Shown here: positions 9,325-64,000 of the stretch, piece by piece
How positions within the stretch are numbered: position 1 is the first letter of the stretch
How the letters are laid out: each line of letters opens with the position of its first letter
Assembly: GCA_947044405.1 (NCBI GenBank)
Contig: CAMRHE010000166.1
Span: 3,349,501-3,413,500, forward strand
Direction: 5' to 3'
Length of the DNA stretch: 64,000 bases
Origin: Leptodactylus fallax
Taxonomy: Eukaryota > Chordata > Amphibia > Anura > Leptodactylidae
Notes under the pieces: generated by a model
What the model saw: only the letters and a program-made list of their open reading frames with translations
Databases searched by the model: none
What the model was told of the DNA's origin: nothing
Translations under genes and position numbers: made by a program

Positions 9325-10873
9325 CAGTGGGGGAAAAAAGTATTTAGTCAGCCACCAATTGTGCAAGTTCTCCCACTTAAAAAGATGAGAGAGGCCTGTA
9401 ATTGACATCACACTGTCTGAGTTTTTAAGAATTTATTTGCAAATTATGGTGGAAAATAAGTATTTGGTCACCTACAAACAAGCAAGATTTCTGGCTCTCA
9501 CAGACCTGTAACTTCTTCTTTAAGAGGCTCCTCTGTCCTCCACTCATTACCTGTAGTAATGGCACCTGTTTGACATTGTTATCAGTATAAAAGACACCTG
9601 TCCACAACCTCAAACAGTCACACTCCAAACTCCACTATGGTGAAGACCAAAGAGCTGTGGAAGGACACCAGAAACAAAATTGTAGACCTGTACCAGGCTG
9701 GGAAGACTAAATCTGCAATAGGCAAGCAGCTTGGTGTGAAGAAATCAACCGTGAGAGTAATAATTAGAAAATGGAAGACATATAAGACCACTGATAATCT
9801 CCCTCGATCAGGGGCTCCACGCAAGATCTCACCCCGTGGGGTCAAAATGATCACATGAACGGTGAGCAAAAATCCCAGAACCACACGGGGGGACCTAGTG
9901 AATGACCTGCAGAAAGCTGGGACTAACGTAACAAAGGCTACTGTCAGTAACACGCTACGCCGCCAGGGACTCAGATCCTGCAGTGCCAGACGTGTCCCCC
10001 TACTTAAGCCAGTGCATATCCGGGCCCATCTGAAGTTTGCTAGAGAGCATTTGGATGTTCCAGAAGAGTAATGGGAGAATGTCATATGGTCAGATGAAAC
10101 CAAAGTAGAACTGTTTTGTAGAAACACAACTCATCGTGTTTAGAGTGAATGCTTAGTTGCATCCAAAGAACACCATACCTACTGCGAAGCATGGGGGTGG
10201 CAACATCATGCTTTGAGGCTATTTCTCTGCAAAGGGACCAGAACGACTGATCCGTGTACATGAAATAATAAATGGGGCCATGTATCGTGAGATTTTGATT
10301 GCAAACCTCCTTGCATCAGCAAGGGCATTGAAGATGAAATGTGGCTGGGTCTTTCAGCATGACAATGATCCCAAGCACACCGCCAGGACAACTAAGGAGT
10401 GGTTTCGTAAGAAGCATTCCAAGGTCCTGGAGTGGCCTAGCCAGTCTCCAGATCTTAACCCCGTAGAAAACCTTTGGAGGGAGTTGAAAGTCCGTGTTGC
10501 CCAGCGACAGCCAAAAAACATCACTGCTCTAGAGGAGATCTACATGGAGGAATGGGCCAACATACCAGCAACAGTGTGTGCCAACCTTGTGAAGACTTAC
10601 AGAAAACGTTTGACCTCTGTCATTGCCAACAAAGGATATATAACAAAGTATTGAGATGAACTTTTGTTATTGACCAAATACTTATTTTCCACCATAATTT
10701 GCAAATAAATTCTTTAAAAATCAGACAATGTGATTTTCTGGATTTGTTTTCTCATTTTTTCTGTCATAGTTGAGGTTTACCTATGATGACAATTACAGGC
10801 CTCTCTCTCTCTATCTTTTTAAGTGGGAGAACTTGCACAATTGGTGGCTGACTAAATACTTTTTCCCCCACTG
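9325..10873 (+). mobile_element. Tc1-like DNA transposon, copy 2 (1549 bp)
   Basis: Clean ends: TA at 9323-9324, then CAGTGGGGGAAAAAAGTATT; at the right TTTTTCCCCCACTG to 10873, then TA at 10874-10875. The inverted repeats are about 150 bp or more and include AGTCAGCCACCAATTGTGC and AAATTATGGTGGAAAATAAG near the inner end. This is a complete-length element with intact tips but a broken transposase gene. Confidence 0.93.
9637..10654 (+). pseudogene. Tc1-like transposase, inactivated (copy 2)
   Basis: It starts [20 protein letters not shown] at the ATG at 9637. The helix-turn-helix region ([19 protein letters not shown]), a basic linker, VIWSDETKVELF (first catalytic Asp), [13 protein letters not shown] (second Asp) and [12 protein letters not shown] (catalytic Glu) are all visible, ending GYITKY stop at 10654. 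Breaks: TGA at 9856-9858, TAA at 10069-10071, TAG at 10141-10143, and a frameshift between there and about 10,200 after which the last third (from 10280) is open. By family knowledge the intact enzyme would be about 340 aa. The gene is dead, but the tips could still be moved by a related transposase. Confidence 0.9.
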
Positions 10874-15895: not shown

Positions 15896-17482
15896 CAGTA
15901 CAGACCAAAAGTTTGGACACACCTTCTCATTCCAAGAGTTTTCTGTATTTTCATGACTATAAAAATTGTAGATTCACACTGAAGGCATCAAAACTATGAA
16001 TTAACACATGTGGAATTATATACTTAACAAAAAAGTGTGAAACAATTGAAAATATGTCTTATATTCTAGGTTCTTCAAAGTAGCCACCTTTTGCTTTGAT
16101 TACTGCTTTGCACACTCTTGGCATTCTCTTGATGAGCTTCAAGAGGTAGTCACTTGAAATGGTCTTCCAACAGTCTTGAAGGAGTTCCCAGAGATGCTTA
16201 GCACTTGTTGGCCCTTATGCCTTCACTCTGGGGTCCAGCTCACCCCAAACCATCTCGATTGGGTTCAGGTCTGGTGACTGTGGAGGCCAGGTCATCTGGT
16301 GTAGCACCCCATCACTCTCCTTCTTGGTCAAATAGCCCTTCCACAGTCTGGAGGTGTGTTTTGGGTCATTGTCCTGTTGAAAAATAAATGATGGTCCAAC
16401 TAAACGCAAACCGGATGGAATAGCATGCCGCTGCAAGATGCTGTGGTAACCATGCTGGTTCAGTATTCCTTCAATTTTGAATAAATCCCCAACAGTGTCG
16501 CCAGCAAAGCACCCCCACACCATCACACCTCCTCCTCCATGCTTCACGGTGGGAACCAGGCATGTAGAGTCCATTCGTTCACCTTTTCTGCGTCGCACAA
16601 AGACACGGTGGTTGGAACCAAAGATCTCAAATTTGGACTCATCAGACCAAAGCACAGATTTCCACAGGTCTAATGTCCATTCCTTGTGTTCTTTAGCCCA
16701 AACAAGTCTCTTCTGCTTGTTGCCTGTCCTTAGCAGTGGTTTCCTAGCAGCTATTTTACCATGAAAGCCTGCTGCACACAGTCTCCTCTTAACAGTTGTT
16801 GTAGAGATGTGTCTGCTGCTAGAACTCTGTGTGGCATTGACCTGGTCTCTAATCTGAGCTGCTGTTAACCTGCGATTTCTGAGGCTGGTGACTCGGATGA
16901 ACTTATCCTCTGCAGCAGAGGTGACTCTTGGTCTTCCTTTCCTGGGGCGGTCCTCATGTGAGCCAGTTTCTTTGTAGCGCTTGATGGTTTTGGCCACTGC
17001 ACTTGGGGACACTTTCAAAGTTTTCCCAATTTTTCGGACTGACTGACCTGCATTTCTTAAAGTAATGATGGCCATTCGTTTTTCTTTACTTAGCTGCTTT
17101 TTTCTTGCCATAATACAAATTCTAACACTCCATTCAGTAGGACTATCAGCTGTGTATCCACCTGACTTCTGAACAACACAACTGATGGTCCCAACCCCAT
17201 TTATAAGGCACTTATTAAACCTGACAGGGCACACCTGTGAAGTGAAAACCATTTCAGGTGACTACCTCTTGAAGCTCATCAAGAGAATGCCAAGAGTGTG
17301 CAAAGCAGTAATCAAAGCAAAAGGTGGCTACTTTGAAGAACCTAGTATATATAAGTATATAATTCTACATGTGTTAATTCATAGTTTTGATGCCTTCAGT
17401 GTGAATCTACAATTTTTATAGTCATGAAAATACAGAAAACTCTTGGAATGAGAAGGTGTGTCTAAACTTTTGGTCTGTACTG
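15896..17482 (-). mobile_element. Tc1-like DNA transposon, copy 4 (1587 bp, nearly intact)
   Basis: TA at 15894-15895 and 17483-17484 flank ends CAGTACAGACCAAAAG and CTTTTGGTCTGTACTG. The inverted repeats are unusually long (left 15896-16162, right 17249-17482), nearly identical apart from a roughly 30-base deletion in the right arm. The left arm reaches into the 3' end of the transposase gene, so both arms carry the coding sequence for the transposase C-terminus on opposite strands. Confidence 0.93.
16059..17111 (-). pseudogene. Tc1-like transposase, 350 codons with one internal stop
   Basis: The start is the ATG at 17111 (MARKKQLSKEKRMAIITL) and the natural stop is at 16059-16061 (...GYFEEPRI). 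An in-frame TAA at 16215-16217 replaces codon 299, which is Lys in the related copy 3. Visible: paired-like helix-turn-helix (residues about 10-50), GRPR at 59-62, WSDE with catalytic Asp157, QQDND with Asp247, and SPDLNPIE with catalytic Glu286. The DDE triad is therefore complete and only the last 51 residues are cut off. Tc1 transposases bind the inverted repeats and cut and paste into TA. Whether the 298-aa product works is unknown. The frame upstream of 17111 is open but lies in the inverted repeat, so the ATG before MARKKQ is preferred. Confidence 0.9.
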
Positions 17483-24559: not shown

Positions 24560-25480
24560 GGTCTGTGCGCCCCGCACTTCAGCCTCCTCCTCATTGCCGG
24601 GTATCGCGCTGCCGTTTCTTAGCGGCTCACATCACACTCCTCACTCTCCAGTTTAGGCTCCCCCGCCCTGAAGAGTTTCTTGGCCAGTGTCCGGGGACAT
24701 GAGGGGACGGTCCCCTGTAGGACCCGCCCGGGCTCTGGGGCCTCGCTGTAGTTAGAAGCCGGCTCAGCACGGGCAATGCACGTAGCGCTGTGTGCCCGCT
24801 ACCTGGACGGCAGAGCCAGCGCAGAGGGGCAAAGATAGCCGCGCTCCGGTGAGGGGGAGCCGGCCAGACGCTGAGAAAGCAGGCGGGGCAGCACCGTGTA
24901 AACACGGCAGACGACTGGAGGCGACTTTGGGGAGCAGGTAGAGGAGCCGCGTCTGACACCCGGGGAGCTGAGGGCAGGGAGGAGCCGGGGGTGTAGAGGA
25001 GCTCCGGCTGACTTAGTTGGGGGCGGTGTATACTCTACATAGAGTACAGTGACAACTTCTATACAGCACAGCTGTGTGCCGGAGAACTTACCACACTGAC
25101 ACTAGTGTGTATAGACAGCCAGCCAGCCGCGGGTACTGCACGATAGGGGTGGGCGGGCACTAACCTTGGCACTAGCCCTGACCTGGGAAGGGAGATGGAG
25201 GTGCACATTGGACTCGGGGGGGGTGTACAAGCAGCCGCCCGGCAAGATGATACGAGGAGCCTTTGAGAATCTCTTTCTGAGCGTCCGGGAGGCGCTGCAA
25301 GGTGACAGGAAGACCGCAGGTCCACCTGAGCCGTGCCACCCGCTGTCCGCCTGGAGGGAGCCCGCTGCCCCTCATACACACACTGCCTGGAGTGAACACC
25401 CGGGGGAGTGGAGTGAAGCCCGGGGCACCCAGGCAGCACCGTGGAGAGAAGCTGCCCAGTCAGACGCAGCGCCCTGCAGC
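24560..25480 (+). promoter_or_regulatory. CpG-rich island covering the probable AR promoter, leader and start of exon 1
   Basis: The stretch is visibly much richer in GC and CpG than the AT-rich surroundings. GC-box-like motifs are CCCGCCCGGG (about 24723), GGGGGCGG (25019-25026) and GGGCGGG (25151-25157). No canonical TATA box is in a convincing place. AR promoters are known to be TATA-less and Sp1-driven, which fits. A short palindrome TACTCTA/TAGAGTA lies near 25030-25046. The transcription start site is not determined. Confidence 0.6.
24776..24838 (+). other. Possible upstream ORF in the AR leader (20 codons)
   Basis: ATG at 24776 opens 20 codons (MHVALCARYLDG...) and stops at TAG 24836-24838, ending about 356 bases before the AR start. 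It would matter only if transcription starts upstream of it. There is no evidence for translation. Confidence 0.25.
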
Positions 25481-26412
25481 CCACCTAGCGAGGCGTCTCA
25501 GTTCCCTGCCCTAAGCAGCTGCTCCACGGAGCTGAAGGAGATCCTGGGAGAGCAAGGAGGGATGCTTGAGACCGAGGAAAACAACTCCGAGCAAGCTTCC
25601 AAGGACAGGTACCCACTGACGCCAGAGGGCATCTCAGATAGTGCCAAGGAGATCTGTAAAGCGGTGTCTGTGTCACTAGGGCTGAGCATGGAGGCGCTGG
25701 AGCACCTGAACGCAGGGGCAGAGTCCCAGAGAGGAGACTGTATGTTTGCTGGCCCCCCCACTCACACCATGGACACCCACAAGTGTCAGGTGGGTGAGGA
25801 AGACAAGTCTGAAACCTCATCCCCCCAGTACCGTGAAGGTGCCTTCAGGAGGAGCAGCCAGACCAACTTTTCTGCTGGCAAAGCCCCAGAGGATGGCACT
25901 TCTCTAGGCACAGATGAGAAGGAGCAGCCCTGTACAGAGTTGGCACTACCTGAATCAGGGGGCTACAGAAGCCGTGCCATGGAGTTGGCACCCAGCCTTA
26001 CCTTGTATAAGCCCTCTACGTTCATGGAAGATAACCCTGCCTACCCAGCCTACAGCTTTCAGATGGCACTTACACCACATGGCCGAATAAAAGTAGAAAG
26101 CCCCATGGAGTTTGGTGGCAGTGCTTGGGGGGCACCAAGCAGGTACAGTGAAATATCCGGCTATGCTCATTGTGGTCCAGCTGGTAATTGGCATTCTCTC
26201 TTTGAGGAAGGGCAGTCCTCTGGTTCTTATACTGATGCCAGCCTCTATAGCTACCCACGAAGCCATGTTCCACCTGGTCCGGACAGTGAATTCCCATCGG
26301 ACACTTGGTATCCAGCGACAGCCATGTTGGGTAGAGTGCCCTATGGTAGTCCCATGAAGTCTGAGATGAGTCCATGGATGGAGGGATACCCCGGCGCATT
26401 TGGAGAGATGAG
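25195..26412 (+). CDS. ar: Androgen receptor, coding exon 1 (N-terminal domain), with a one-base frame break
   Basis: AR is a steroid-activated nuclear transcription factor; this exon encodes its N-terminal transactivation domain. The start chosen is the ATG at 25195 (good context, G at -3 and +4), reading MEVHIGLG, the family start. Eight Gs at 25216-25223 put it out of frame with the rest; seven would restore the frame. In restored numbering: FENLF (FxxLF, residues 23-27), SSCSTELKEIL (107-117), AKEICKAVSVSLGL (150-163), SUMO-type IKVE (Lys299), WHSLF (WxxLF, 332-336), MKSEMSPW (Lys388), ending GEM plus two bases of the next codon at a GTGGGT donor (26413). This phase matches human exon 1. 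Length is about 405 codons against about 538 in human; the poly-Q, poly-P and poly-G tracts are absent. Without the G correction the first in-frame ATG is 25247, which would lose 17 residues. The zinc-finger and ligand-binding exons are not in the window. Confidence 0.95.
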
Positions 26413-27523
26413 GTGGGTGGTTTGGAATTTTAATGTGTCATCAGTGTCATTTAAGGTGACAGATATCACCTATTTTTGTATACACAGTAAAGGATAGCTG
26501 GGCTGTTATTATTTGAGTACATGCAGGGTGTTGTAGTGCCTCAACTGCTAGAGAGCCACATGTAAACCACTGTTCTGTATTTGAGGGAATTAATTCCTGT
26601 TGTCTCACTGTCCACATGACTGCCCACATGATGACAGCTACACTGTGCTGTACACAACTACGTGCTGTCACCTCTGTGTAGTGAAGTAATAGCCGCACTA
26701 GGCAGCATCTCCACCTGCTCTCCAATACTCAGCCCAAAAACCATGTCATGGTACTAATGGAGGAAGTCACCTGTACATTATTTAATGTTGCACATAGCAC
26801 ATTGCCACTATTTTAGCACATATAAATTAAGTAGGACAGGATTAAAAACTGATGTATTTTTTCATCAGTTATACATTCACCTGTTGTATATAAAGTTAAA
26901 ACAAAGTAACAGGACATACAATAAAGTCTAAGGCAGCGCAATAAAAATATAATAACACAGTGGCACTAAAGCTGGCAAACCCCCCTCCTGGAAGAAGTGA
27001 GCTCCCACTTAACTTTCATCAGTACATTATTGCATTGAGACATTTTTTGTCTTATTTTTAAAGACATCTTTGCAGTCCTACAAAGTTACACATGATGTTA
27101 GTTAATGGTCAAATTTCACAATTTATAACTGGTTCTCAATCTTTGAATGTGAATTATTGTTGATCTTTATCAAATGCTAACCCATTACACAGCAGTTTCA
27201 CTGGAAGCAGTAGTGCACTGTAACAAAGTATATTAACAAAAACACCTAGAGGAGAAAGGACCCTGCACTTTCCCAAGGAAATGAGGTGAGTAAGCCAGGA
27301 GCTAAGATTGTGTAGCGTGGAGCAGCTCCATGTGCCAGAGGACCAGTGTTTCCTACTCCAGTATGCAATATTTAATATTTCTCAGTCTGCACACTGTTGA
27401 TTTTGTTCTGTTCACTTATTTATTTATTTTACTTTTCCAACATAAAATATATATATAAAAATGTTTTATTATTATGGTTTTTAAGGGAGTGTAAGTGTAA
27501 CCGCATTTATTGTTTAACACTAT
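26413..27523. other. Intron start, repeat-poor stretch
   Basis: The coding frame runs on into the intron and stops at 26497. No repeat family or gene was recognised in this kilobase. Confidence 0.4.
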
Positions 27524-48810: not shown

Positions 48811-50459
48811 CAGTCATATGAAAAAGTTTGGGCACCCCTATTAATCTTAATCATTTTTAGTTCTAAATATTTGGGTGTTTGCAACAGCCATTTCAATTTG
48901 ATATATCTAATAACTGATGGACACAGTAATATTTCAGGATTGAAATGAGGTTTATTGTACTAACAGAAAATGTGCAATATGCATTAAACCAAAATTTGAC
49001 CGGTGCAAAAATTTGGGTACCCTTATCATTTTATTGATTTGAATACTCCTAACTACTTTTTACTGACTTACTGAAGCACAAAATTGGTTTTGTAACCTCA
49101 CTGAGCTTTGAACTTCATAGCCAGGTGTATCCAATCATGAGAAAAGGTATTTAAAGTGGCCAATTGCAAGTTGTTCTCCTATTTGGATCTCCTCTGAAGA
49201 GTGGCATCATGGGCTCCTCAAAACAACTCTCAAATGATCTGAAAACAAAGATTGTTCAACATAGTTGTTCAGGGGAAGGATACAAAAAGTTGTCTCAGAG
49301 ATTTAACCTGTCAGTTTCCACTGTGAGGAACACAGTAAGGAAATGGAAGACCACAGGGACAATTCTTGTTAAGCCCAGAAGTGGCAGGCCAAGAAAAATA
49401 TCAGAAAGGCAGAGAAGAAGAATGGTGAGAACAGTCAAGGACAATCCACAGACCACCTCCAAAGAGCTGCAGCATCATCTTGCTGCAGATGGTGTCACTG
49501 TGCATCAGTCAACAATACAGCACACTTTGCACAAGGAGAAGCTGTATGGGAGAGTGATGCGAAAGAAGCCGTTTCTGAAAGCACGCCACAAACAGAGTCG
49601 CCTGAGGTATGCAAAAGCACATTTGGACAAGCCAGCTTAATTTTGGAAGAAGGTCCTGTGGACTGATGAAACAAAGATTGAGTTGTTTGGTCATACAAAA
49701 AGGCGTTATGCATGGCGTCAAAAAAACACAGTATTCCAGGAAAAACACTTGCTACCCACTGTAAAATTTGGTGGAGGTTCCATCACGCTTTGGGGCTGTG
49801 TGGCCAATGCCGGCACCGGGAATCTTGTTAAAGTTGAGGGTCGCATGGATTCAACTCAGTATCAACAGATTCTTGAGAATAATGTACAAGAATCAGTGAC
49901 GAATTTGAAGTTACGCCGGGGATGGATATTTCAGCAAGACAATGATCCAAAACACAGCTCCAAATCTACTCAGGCATTCATGCAGAGGAACAATTACAAT
50001 GTTCTGGAATGGCCATCCCAGTCCCCAGACCTGAATATCATTGAACATCTGTGGGATAATTTGAAGCGGGCTGTCCATGCTCGGCGACCATCAAACTTAA
50101 CTGAACTGGAATTGTTTTGTAAAGAGGAATGGTCAAAAATACCTTCATCCAGGATCCAGGAACTGATTAAAAGCTACAGGAAGCGACTAGAGGCTGTTAT
50201 TTTTGCAAAAGGAGGATCTACTAAATATTAATATCACTTTTCTGTTGAGGCGCCCATACTTTTGCACCGGTCAAATTTTGGTTTAATGCATATTGCACAT
50301 TTTCTGTTAGTACAATAAACCTCATTTCAATCCTGAAATATTACTGTGTCCATCAGTTATTAGATATATCAAATTGAAATGGCTGTTGCAAACACCCAAA
50401 TATTTAGAACTAAAAATGATTAAGATTAATAGGGGTGCCCAAACTTTTTCATATGACTG
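48811..50459 (+). mobile_element. Tc1-like DNA transposon, copy 6 (1649 bp, nearly intact)
   Basis: TA at 48809-48810 and 50460-50461 flank ends CAGTCATATGAAAAAGTTTGG and CCAAACTTTTTCATATGACTG. The inverted repeats are about 210 bp and nearly identical (48811-49021, 50250-50459). It contains a transposase gene of the usual length with one stop codon. It looks like the youngest Tc1 copy in the window. Confidence 0.95.
49209..50231 (+). pseudogene. Tc1-like transposase, 340 codons with a single internal stop
   Basis: The start is ATG 49209 (MGSSKQLSNDLKTKIVQ) and the stop is at 50231 after GGSTKY. The only break is TAA at codon 144 (49638-49640), between the DNA-binding and catalytic halves; the frame is otherwise continuous. 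Residues about 10-50 form the first helix-turn-helix (KLSQRFNLSVSTVRN), and GRPR is at 59-62 with a basic stretch after it. WTDE gives Asp153, QQDND Asp244 and SPDLNIIE Glu279. Those numbers and the 340-codon length equal what I recall for Sleeping Beauty, so the alignment is gap-free at the catalytic sites. As read, it gives a 143-aa DNA-binding fragment, which could act as a competitor of related transposases (inference). Confidence 0.92.
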
Positions 50460-61138: not shown

Positions 61139-64000
61139 TTTTTTTTTATAAACTGTAATTTTTATTGAAACATTTTTTGAAAAAGATACAATTCAAATGC
61201 AAAGCAAATAATCCGTTAAATCCAAAAAAGAAAAACAACAACACAAAGACTTAATTTAGGGAATACAAAAGACACAACAAAGGGAAGGAACAATAAGGAG
61301 AAAGACAGTTGGGGGTCAGATTTCAGAGACCCTGTGTGGCACAGTAGGAATCCCAATGGGACCAAATTGCTTCAAATGCCTCTACCGTGTGGTTGAGGGA
61401 GGCAGTCAAGTACTCCAGACTGCAGACGTCCTTCATACGGACTATCAATTCTGAAATTGCTGGGGGAAGAGCTTCCCTCCAATGGCGGGCTATAAGTGTT
61501 TTGGCCACGGTACACAAGTAAAAAAATAACTTAGATGTATTTTTACCGAGATCTTTTGGAGGGAGATTCAGCAGATAAACCATGGGATCCAGGGGTATAC
61601 CCTGGATAAAAAGAATGTTAGTCAACTTCCCAACCTCAAACCAGAAAGGGCGGACTAGGGGGCATTCCCAAAAAACATGAAACAATGTTCCAAGTGTCGC
61701 TTGGCATCGCCAACAACTAGAAGAAATAGTAGGGTTGAGAGTATGCAGTAGAGCCGGAGTATGATACCAGTGCATGAGTATTTTGTATTGTGTTTCCCTA
61801 AACGTTATACAGGAAGAGGATTTAGCTGCTCGGGACCAGATAACCTGCCACTGGTTGTATGAAATGTGCATGCCCAAGGCTTCAGACCACCGGGTCATAT
61901 ATTTGTGGACCACCGGGCCCGCCCCCCTTGAGGGATCAAAAACCTATATATATTTGATATCAGGCCTCTAGTGGAGGTGCCTGCTCGACATAATCGTTCA
62001 AATACTGTGGGGAGGGAGACCCGGGTGGACCCAAACTGGGAAACAACAAAATGAACTATCTGCTGGTAGTGGAACCACTCTGAGGTAGGCAAGTGCTGTA
62101 TGGAAGTGAGGTAATCGAAGGACCTGAGCTCCAAAGTCGACGGGTCCACCAAGTCAGCTATATGGAACAAGCCCAACCCACTCCAGGGCCTGACCATAGC
62201 GGCAGTGAGTCCGCTCGGAAGAAGTGGATTATATAAAAAGGAAATCATAGATGAGTGCGGGGAGGCCAATCGAAAGAGTCTACAACATGTGTTCCAGATA
62301 GTCCGGGTGAAGCCGATAGGGCCCAGCAGCGGGGTAGAGGATAGGGGGGGGGGGAAGAGGACCACAGATATGCATTGGGATGTACAGGAGCCAGCCAAAG
62401 CTTCTCTATCTCCACCCATTTCGTGTGCGCCTGGGGTGCCCCCAAAACGGTATACTCCGCAGATGAGCAGCCCTGTAATAGTGCAACATGTGTGGAACCC
62501 CCATTCCCCCCTCCGTCTTACCCGCCAGCATCACTGATCGGGGAATGCGATGGCGCTTGCCATTCCATATAAATTGAAATATTGCTTTTTGTAGGGATTT
62601 CAATTCGGACCTAGGGACTGCAACTGGGAGGGTTTCAAAGAAATAAAGAAGCTTCGGGAGGAGGGTCATCTTAACCGCAGTTATATGGCCTATGAGAGAA
62701 ATATGAAGTGGGCGCCACTTATCTAGGAGAGAGCGGAGCTCATGAAACAGGTGAGGATAATTGGCTGAATAAAGCGTATGATACGAAGAAGATAATTGGA
62801 CACCCAAATAGCGCAGTGAGCGGTCCCTCCACTGGAAAGCAAAATTAGATTTAAGCAACTGCAAAACCTCACTTGGGACATTTAGAGGCAGGGCTTCCGT
62901 TTTACTAGGGTTAACCTTATAGCCTGATAGGTCTCCATAATCCTTTAAAACACGGAGAAGATTTGGAAGGGAGGTATGGGGTTTAGTGAGGGTCAACAGG
63001 ACATCATCTGCAAATAAACTAATCTTAAATTCCCTATCTCTCACAAATACCCCAGTGACATCCGGGGCAGATCTAATTTGGGCCGCCAGGGGTTCAATAC
63101 ACAATGCAAATATTAGAGGTGACAAAGGGCATCCCTGACGGGTTCCATTACGGATGGACAAGGGTTGGGAGGAAGCATTAGGGAGCTTAACAACTGCTGA
63201 GGGGTGAGAATAGAGAGCCCTTATGGCCGTGAGGAAGGCCCCCCGAGAACCCGTAGCTCTCAAGGGTGGCTATCATAAATGACCAATCAAGGCGATCGAA
63301 GGCCTTCTCAGCGTCCAGGCTCAAAAGCAAAGTGGGGGTGGAAGAACGGTTGGCCACGTCAATCAAGTCCACTGCCCTTCTAGTGTTGTCTCCTCCTTGA
63401 CGACAAGGGACAAATCCCACCTGGTCTTTATGGATGAGAGTCGGAAGCCAAAGGCCAAGCCTGTTTGCCAAGATTTTTGTAAATAGTTTGAGATCTGTAT
63501 TCAGGAGGGCGATGGGACGATAATTAGAACATTCCTGATGGTCCTTATGTGGCTTTGGGACTAGGGAAATATGGGAGTGTAGCATTGTATGCGGGATCGG
63601 GGCTCCGTCCAAAAAAGAATTGAAGAGTTTACACATATGAGGAAGGAGATCAGAATGGAAAGTTTTATAATAGGCATAGGTGAACCCATCCGGGCCCGGA
63701 GCTTTACCATTAGGGAGACCCTCCAAGACGGCAGTCAACTCCTCGCCCAATATTGGAGCATTAAGCGAAGAGAGAGCTGAAGCTGGGAGGACCGGGAGTC
63801 GACAGGAGGTCAGGTAGGAATGCAAATTTGTCTCTGTAATGGAGGGGCCTCTCCTAGCAGGCGAGGGAAGGTTATATAATGTAGTGTAGTAATCCCTAAA
63901 TAGGGTCGCTATGGTATCGGGGTGGTGTTGTAGGGTGCCCTGGGAATCTCGGACAGCATGAGGTGTAGAAGAAACCCGGCGGTCTTTCAGGGCTCTGGCC
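61139..64000 (-). mobile_element. L1/Tx1-type LINE, antisense to AR, runs off the window
   Basis: The 3' end is at 61139 with a short A tail (T run 61139-61147 on the + strand), preceded on the element strand by CAATAAA and a roughly 170-base 3' UTR. ORF2 fills the rest to 64000; the endonuclease part, ORF1 and the 5' end lie outside. The antisense orientation in the intron is the commoner tolerated one, since its poly-A signal then does not read in the gene's direction. Confidence 0.93.
61323..64000 (-). pseudogene. LINE ORF2: reverse transcriptase and C-terminal domain, four frame breaks
   Basis: The 5' part is beyond the window and the stop is TGA at 61323-61325. From the 5' side: NGKAPGPDGF, then PKPHKDHQECSNYRPIALLN (RT fingers), LLLSLDAEKAFDRLDW with the first catalytic Asp near 63313, NGTRQGCPLSPLIFALCIEPLA, FADD at 63003-63014 (catalytic pair), then the thumb and a C-terminal part with a CWRC...H...C cluster. 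Frame changes fall at C6 63239-63244, C5 62439-62443, G11 62344-62354 and near C6 61922-61927. No in-frame nonsense codon was seen between breaks over about 890 codons. Either the copy is young, or the breaks are assembly indels and the ORF is intact. ORF2 proteins nick DNA and reverse-transcribe the element RNA. Confidence 0.92.

What the first reader, a model, noticed from the sequence alone, without database searches (positions are those of the whole stretch)
25195..25247. AR start codon is out of frame because of one extra G in a G8 run
ATG 25195 reads the conserved AR N-terminus (MEVHIGLG) but the frame is lost at eight Gs (25216-25223). Seven Gs give GVYKQPPGK and place FENLF at residues 23-27, exactly where human AR has FQNLF. 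An automatic caller would either start inside the domain at 25247 or invent a non-ATG start upstream. A real frameshift would remove the normal N-terminus, which is hard to reconcile with the otherwise clean 400-codon frame.
Basis: partly seen in the sequence, partly recalled or inferred. Interest (0 to 1): 0.85.

Follow-up and report, generated by a model that had tools for sequence, protein, structure and literature searches.

The report
Miscounted G run in frog gene
A frog androgen receptor gene looks broken near its start, most likely only because one run of Gs is written one base too long, a counting error that also seems to affect other genes in this genome assembly.

Summary
ATG 25195 opens MEVHIGLG, eight Gs lie at 25216-25223, and the rest of androgen receptor (AR) exon 1 is open for 399 codons in another frame, 25217-26413. 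Of 23 frog AR proteins found (22 named, 1 unnamed), 21 begin MEVH[ILV]GLGG[VA]YK in one frame, with FENLF at residues 23-27; the other two records lack the N-terminus. Eight AR exons lie in order on one contig, with no stops in the aligned parts, and exon 1 shows no relaxed selection. I calibrated the assembly with 125 protocadherin exons of the same genome. Of the 13 lowest-scoring, 7 are open, 5 carry one frame switch each at a homopolymer of 5-8 bases, and 1 ends early. Of the other 112, 16 are short, and 6 of those switch frame at a homopolymer (my reading). Homopolymer miscounts thus seem common here, and AR G8 is most likely one of them. Reads were not available, so a real allele is not excluded; a start at Met 25247 would still keep FENLF. 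An ordinary artefact, of low interest.

The parts
25195..25266 (+). Frame opened by the canonical AR start codon as the sequence is written: 23 codons, then TGA 25264-25266
   Evidence: Same N-terminus as in 21 of 23 frog AR proteins. The forward primer for Rana rugosa Z-AR cDNA, after a cloning tail, reads ATGGAGGTGCACATTGGACT (PMC4020753, passage), identical to 25195-25214.
25216..25223 (+). Run of eight Gs; place of the frame switch
   Evidence: coordinates; tblastn of frog ARs enters the second frame at 25217
25217..26413 (+). AR exon 1 coding frame (N-terminal domain), 399 open codons; splice donor GT at about 26413 (my reading)
   Evidence: Pfam PF02166 Androgen_recep E 4.8e-31
25247..25249 (+). 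First in-frame ATG of the exon 1 frame, A at -3; corresponds to Met18 of other frog ARs and precedes FENLF
   Evidence: the Pelobates cultripes record P0003 starts at this Met
25166..25168 (+). TTG that a mechanical caller uses as a start of the exon 1 frame
25753..25759 (+). C7 run in the same exon, in frame with relatives (internal control)
   Evidence: also C6 25821-25826 and G6 26127-26132

Best explanation
This is exon 1 of an ordinary frog androgen receptor gene, present at one locus in this assembly as far as the searches show. The G run after codon 7 is probably one base too long in the assembly, so the true start codon appears out of frame. The receptor would be made from ATG 25195 as in other frogs, with the N-terminal FENLF motif whose human counterpart binds the ligand-binding domain. 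Shown here: the frame switch inside the G run, the conserved N-terminus in relatives, the otherwise open gene, and homopolymer frame switches in other genes of the same assembly. Inferred: that the reads carry a different run length.
For: N-terminus MEVH[ILV]GLGG[VA]YK with GAF at residue 21 in 21 of 23 frog ARs. Nearest relative Leptodactylus fuscus: 376 of 393 residues identical from residue 8 on. 0 of 108 sites invariant in 21 other rows are changed in the window, and relative-rate tests against 8 outgroups show no acceleration. Eight exons in order on contig C166; exons 2-8 at 91-100% identity to L. fuscus with no stops in the aligned parts. Calibration: of the 13 lowest-scoring protocadherin exons, 5 have one frame switch each, at T8, C6, C6, C5 and C6. 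Of the other 112, 16 are short; 6 of these switch at a run of 5-9 bases, all towards one extra base (my reading). Homopolymer length is described as the primary HiFi error mode (PMC7545148, passages), and false insertions in a GC-rich 5' exon are reported for zebra finch PCDH17 in an older assembly (PMC9516821, passages).
Against: No reads, cDNA or second haplotype of this species were available, and the sequencing platform is unknown. The other G/C runs of six or more in the exon (C7, C6, G6) keep the frame. The calibration is uneven: 5 of 13 exons in one set but 6 of 112 in the other. Of the five switches at G or C runs, two go towards an extra base, as in AR, and three towards a missing one. 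10 of the 16 short exons of the larger set have lesions outside homopolymers, so natural pseudogenes are probably present. A second calibration (forkhead genes) could not be run. G runs also slip in nature.
Confidence: 0.92

Rival explanations
1. A real, recent frameshift allele carried by the sequenced animal (heterozygous or homozygous), with normal alleles in the population. It would give a short 23-codon peptide and little receptor.
For: G runs mutate by slippage (general knowledge). The rest of the gene shows no decay, which also fits a young allele.
Against: The same lesion type is found in other genes of this assembly, so an error needs no special event.
Confidence: 0.05
2. The eight Gs are fixed in this species, and AR is made from Met 25247 by leaky scanning: a receptor without the first 17 residues but with FENLF.
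For: Met 25247 is in frame, has A at -3, and the equivalent Met is the first residue of the Pelobates record P0003.
Against: ATG 25195 has G at -3 and G at +4, a strong context by general knowledge, and its short frame ends at 25266, past ATG 25247, so few ribosomes should reach it. Residues 1-17 vary little among the 21 frog records that hold them.
Confidence: 0.02
3. The true run has eight Gs and a frame change during transcription or translation at the G run restores AR.
For: A run of Gs is a slippery template (general knowledge); no call supports it.
Against: Nothing in the sequence or relatives calls for it. 21 of 23 frog records read through in one frame.
Confidence: 0.005
4. The window holds a decaying sex-linked or duplicate AR copy, as with the weakly expressed W-linked AR of Rana rugosa.
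For: W-AR of R. rugosa is barely expressed (PMC4020753, abstract and passages).
Against: One AR locus among the scored candidates, exons open in the aligned parts, no accelerated change.
Confidence: 0.005

Closest known systems
Androgen receptor (NR3C4) of frogs, e.g. Leptodactylus fuscus P0007
   Same: Exon 1 sequence, eight exons, FENLF and WHSLF motifs, DNA- and ligand-binding exons
   Different: Only the frame at the G run as written
Homopolymer-length errors in long-read assemblies
   Same: One base, inside a homopolymer, in an otherwise open frame; other genes of the assembly hit alike
   Different: Reads not available to prove it; sequencing platform of this assembly unknown
Pelobates cultripes AR record P0003
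   Same: Gene model starts at the Met that corresponds to 25247; [quoted passage not shown]
   Different: Cause of that start unknown; its DNA was not seen

Membership tests
Androgen receptor (NR3C4) | AR N-terminal domain profile | tested here: met
   PF02166 E 4.8e-31, 108.5 bits against a cut-off of 25.3
Androgen receptor (NR3C4) | N-terminal MEV..GLG and F..LF motif at residues 23-27 | tested here: inconclusive
   Both present, but in two frames as written
Androgen receptor (NR3C4) | DNA-binding and ligand-binding exons downstream in order | tested here: met
   Exons 2-8 at C166 3522490-3673041, 91-100% identity to L. fuscus AR
Homopolymer assembly error | Frame switch lies inside a homopolymer | tested here: met
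   25216-25223
Homopolymer assembly error | Unrelated genes in the same assembly show the same lesion | tested here: met
   5 of 13 and 6 of 112 protocadherin exons, by my reading of the printed frames
Homopolymer assembly error | Reads disagree with the assembled run length | not testable with these tools
   No reads held
Pseudogene | Further stops, frameshifts or relaxed constraint | tested here: not met
   No other stop in 399 codons; 0 of 108 invariant sites changed

The most novel reading that the evidence does not exclude
Eight Gs are real and fixed in this frog, and its androgen receptor starts at the second methionine, keeping FENLF but losing the 17 residues that 21 of 23 frog records share with little change.
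Probability: 0.02. Interest if true: 0.55.

Novelty: not a real feature. Interest (0 to 1): 0.07.

Why it matters
Practically: gene models of AR and of some other genes in this assembly may be truncated or given false starts, and gene-loss claims from it need reads. The protocadherin calibration gives a rough size: 5 homopolymer frame switches in 32,123 bases of 12 exons in one set, but only 6 in 112 exons of the other set.

Tried and rejected
PDB search with the exon 1 product gave two weak matches (E 0.00082), both isatin hydrolase, which I judged to be chance. A 38-residue lizard AR N-terminus gave no PDB match, so residues 23-27 for human FQNLF are recalled; lizard P0029 has FQNLF at 23-27. 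No structure prediction was made, because the domain is largely disordered and a fold would not bear on the question. A second, independent calibration with forkhead genes (PF00250) was asked for eight times and never answered. A search of the own genome with the exon 1 DNA was unanswered and not repeated; the exact 22-base start of the gene occurs once, and the protein search, which scored 58 of 110 candidates, shows one AR locus. The third protein search added no new frog. Protocadherin exons not explained by homopolymers, by my reading: L057, L058, L059, L063, L065 and L066 switch frame elsewhere, L055 and L062 have a stop codon in the open frame, L053 and L067 lack part of the exon. These may be natural pseudogenes, so that set alone would be weak evidence. 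Sex-linked decay and a programmed frame change were considered and rejected as stated under rivals.

Full report
What is there. The window lies on contig C166 of a 2.50-Gb, 2,215-contig genome. ATG 25195 begins MEVHIGLG. A run of eight Gs occupies 25216-25223. As written, the frame ends at TGA 25264-25266, after 23 codons. A second frame, from 25217, reads GGVYKQPPGKMIRGAFENLF and is open for 399 codons to 26413, where a splice donor follows by my reading of the sequence. The frame matches the Pfam AR N-terminal domain (E 4.8e-31). Its nearest upstream stop is TAG 25112, and there is no ATG between that and the first in-frame ATG, 25247.

Relatives. Three protein searches gave 23 frog ARs, P0001-P0023; 22 bear a frog's name and P0001 is unnamed (one search added none). 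21 of 23 begin MEVH[ILV]GLGG[VA]YK and have GAF at residue 21, so FENLF lies at 23-27. The two exceptions are Pyxicephalus P0004, whose record begins far inside the domain, and Pelobates P0003, whose record begins at MIRGAFENLF, the equivalent of Met 25247. [quoted passage not shown] I did not see its DNA, so the cause of that start is unknown. The forward primer used to clone Rana rugosa Z-AR cDNA contains ATGGAGGTGCACATTGGACT after a cloning tail (PMC4020753, passages), the same 20 bases as 25195-25214. The tblastn matches of the 21 frog proteins with a full N-terminus enter the window at 25217, inside the G run, except for Ascaphus P0019, whose match begins at 25208.

State of the gene. With L. 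fuscus AR as the query, eight exons were found in order on C166, 3374711-3673041. The other matches among the scored candidates are weaker, at 28-85% identity, and are other nuclear receptors by my reading. Aligned parts of exons 2-8 are 91-100% identical to L. fuscus with no stop. In exon 1, 376 of 393 aligned residues equal L. fuscus. None of 108 sites that are invariant in the 21 other rows is changed in the window (0-6 when each other row is tested in the same way), and Tajima tests with 8 outgroups give chi-square 0.06-2.25. So there is no sign of decay beyond the single frame switch. The other G/C runs of six or more in the exon, C7 25753-25759, C6 25821-25826 and G6 26127-26132, keep the frame.

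Calibration of the assembly. A single homopolymer lesion could be an error or a real allele, so I asked how common such lesions are in other genes of the same genome. Protocadherins have one long exon that holds this domain (recalled). PF08266 gave 125 matches; by my count of the table 103 have an open frame of at least 700 residues and 22 are shorter. Set one is the 13 lowest-scoring matches (E 6.7e-15 to 3.3e-4), which lie outside the dense clusters on C315, C176 and C1255, though two of them (L072, L078) are neighbours about 9 kb apart. All 13 were fetched. Seven are open for 796-1042 residues. Five have one frame switch and are open on both sides. One, L075, has no further match and may end at an intron. 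The five switches lie at T8 (L072), C6 (L073), C6 (L074), C5 (L076) and C6 (L077), two towards one extra base and three towards one missing base (my reading of the printed frames). That is 5 in 32,123 bases of 12 exons. Set two is the other 112 matches, mostly from the clusters. 96 are open for at least 700 residues by the table; all 16 shorter ones were fetched. Six of the 16 switch at a run of 5-9 bases, all towards one extra base: L052 A7, L054 A9, L056 G5, L060 T7, L061 A7 and L064 A9. The other 10 have other lesions and may be pseudogenes. Set one is richer in G/C runs: 52 of five or more in 32,123 bases, against 30 in 49,818 bases of 26 open loci of set two. Five scattered genes each broken by one base in a homopolymer, and otherwise open, is hard to explain biologically but expected from miscounted homopolymers. 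That these genes are conserved and needed is general knowledge of protocadherins, not tested here.

Literature. [quoted passage not shown] The AR FQNLF motif binds AF-2 in the ligand-binding domain and is also bound by Hsp70 and Hsp40 (PMC6687723, abstract and passages; PMC7949100, passages).

What it would mean if real. With eight Gs, ribosomes starting at 25195 (G at -3, G at +4) would stop at 25266. Met 25247 (A at -3) lies inside that short frame, so it would be reached mainly by leaky scanning (scanning rules from general knowledge). Such a product would keep FENLF. A real allele would therefore probably be a strong reduction, not a certain null. I put all real-variant readings together at about 0.08.

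Verdict. The feature is most likely an artefact in an ordinary gene, of low interest, but it warns about gene models in this assembly.

Noticed in passing
L072, L073, L074, L076, L077 (own genome, C3, C275, C454, C234): Five protocadherin exons each with one frame switch at a homopolymer, which points to an assembly-wide problem.
   Followed up: yes
16215-17252, 49164-50231, 10280-10654: Tc1/mariner-type transposase pieces (PF01498, PF13358). The 49164-50231 copy is split into an HTH part and a DDE part.
   Followed up: partly
61323-63825 (- strand): LINE-like reverse transcriptase (PF00078) split between two overlapping frames near 63190-63263; a G11 run lies at 62344-62354.
   Followed up: no
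P0003: The Pelobates cultripes AR record starts at the Met equivalent to 25247; worth checking for the same G-run problem.
   Followed up: no
26413 to contig C166 position 3522490: AR intron 1 is about 147 kb by the places of exons 1 and 2, so the window holds exon 1 only.
   Followed up: yes
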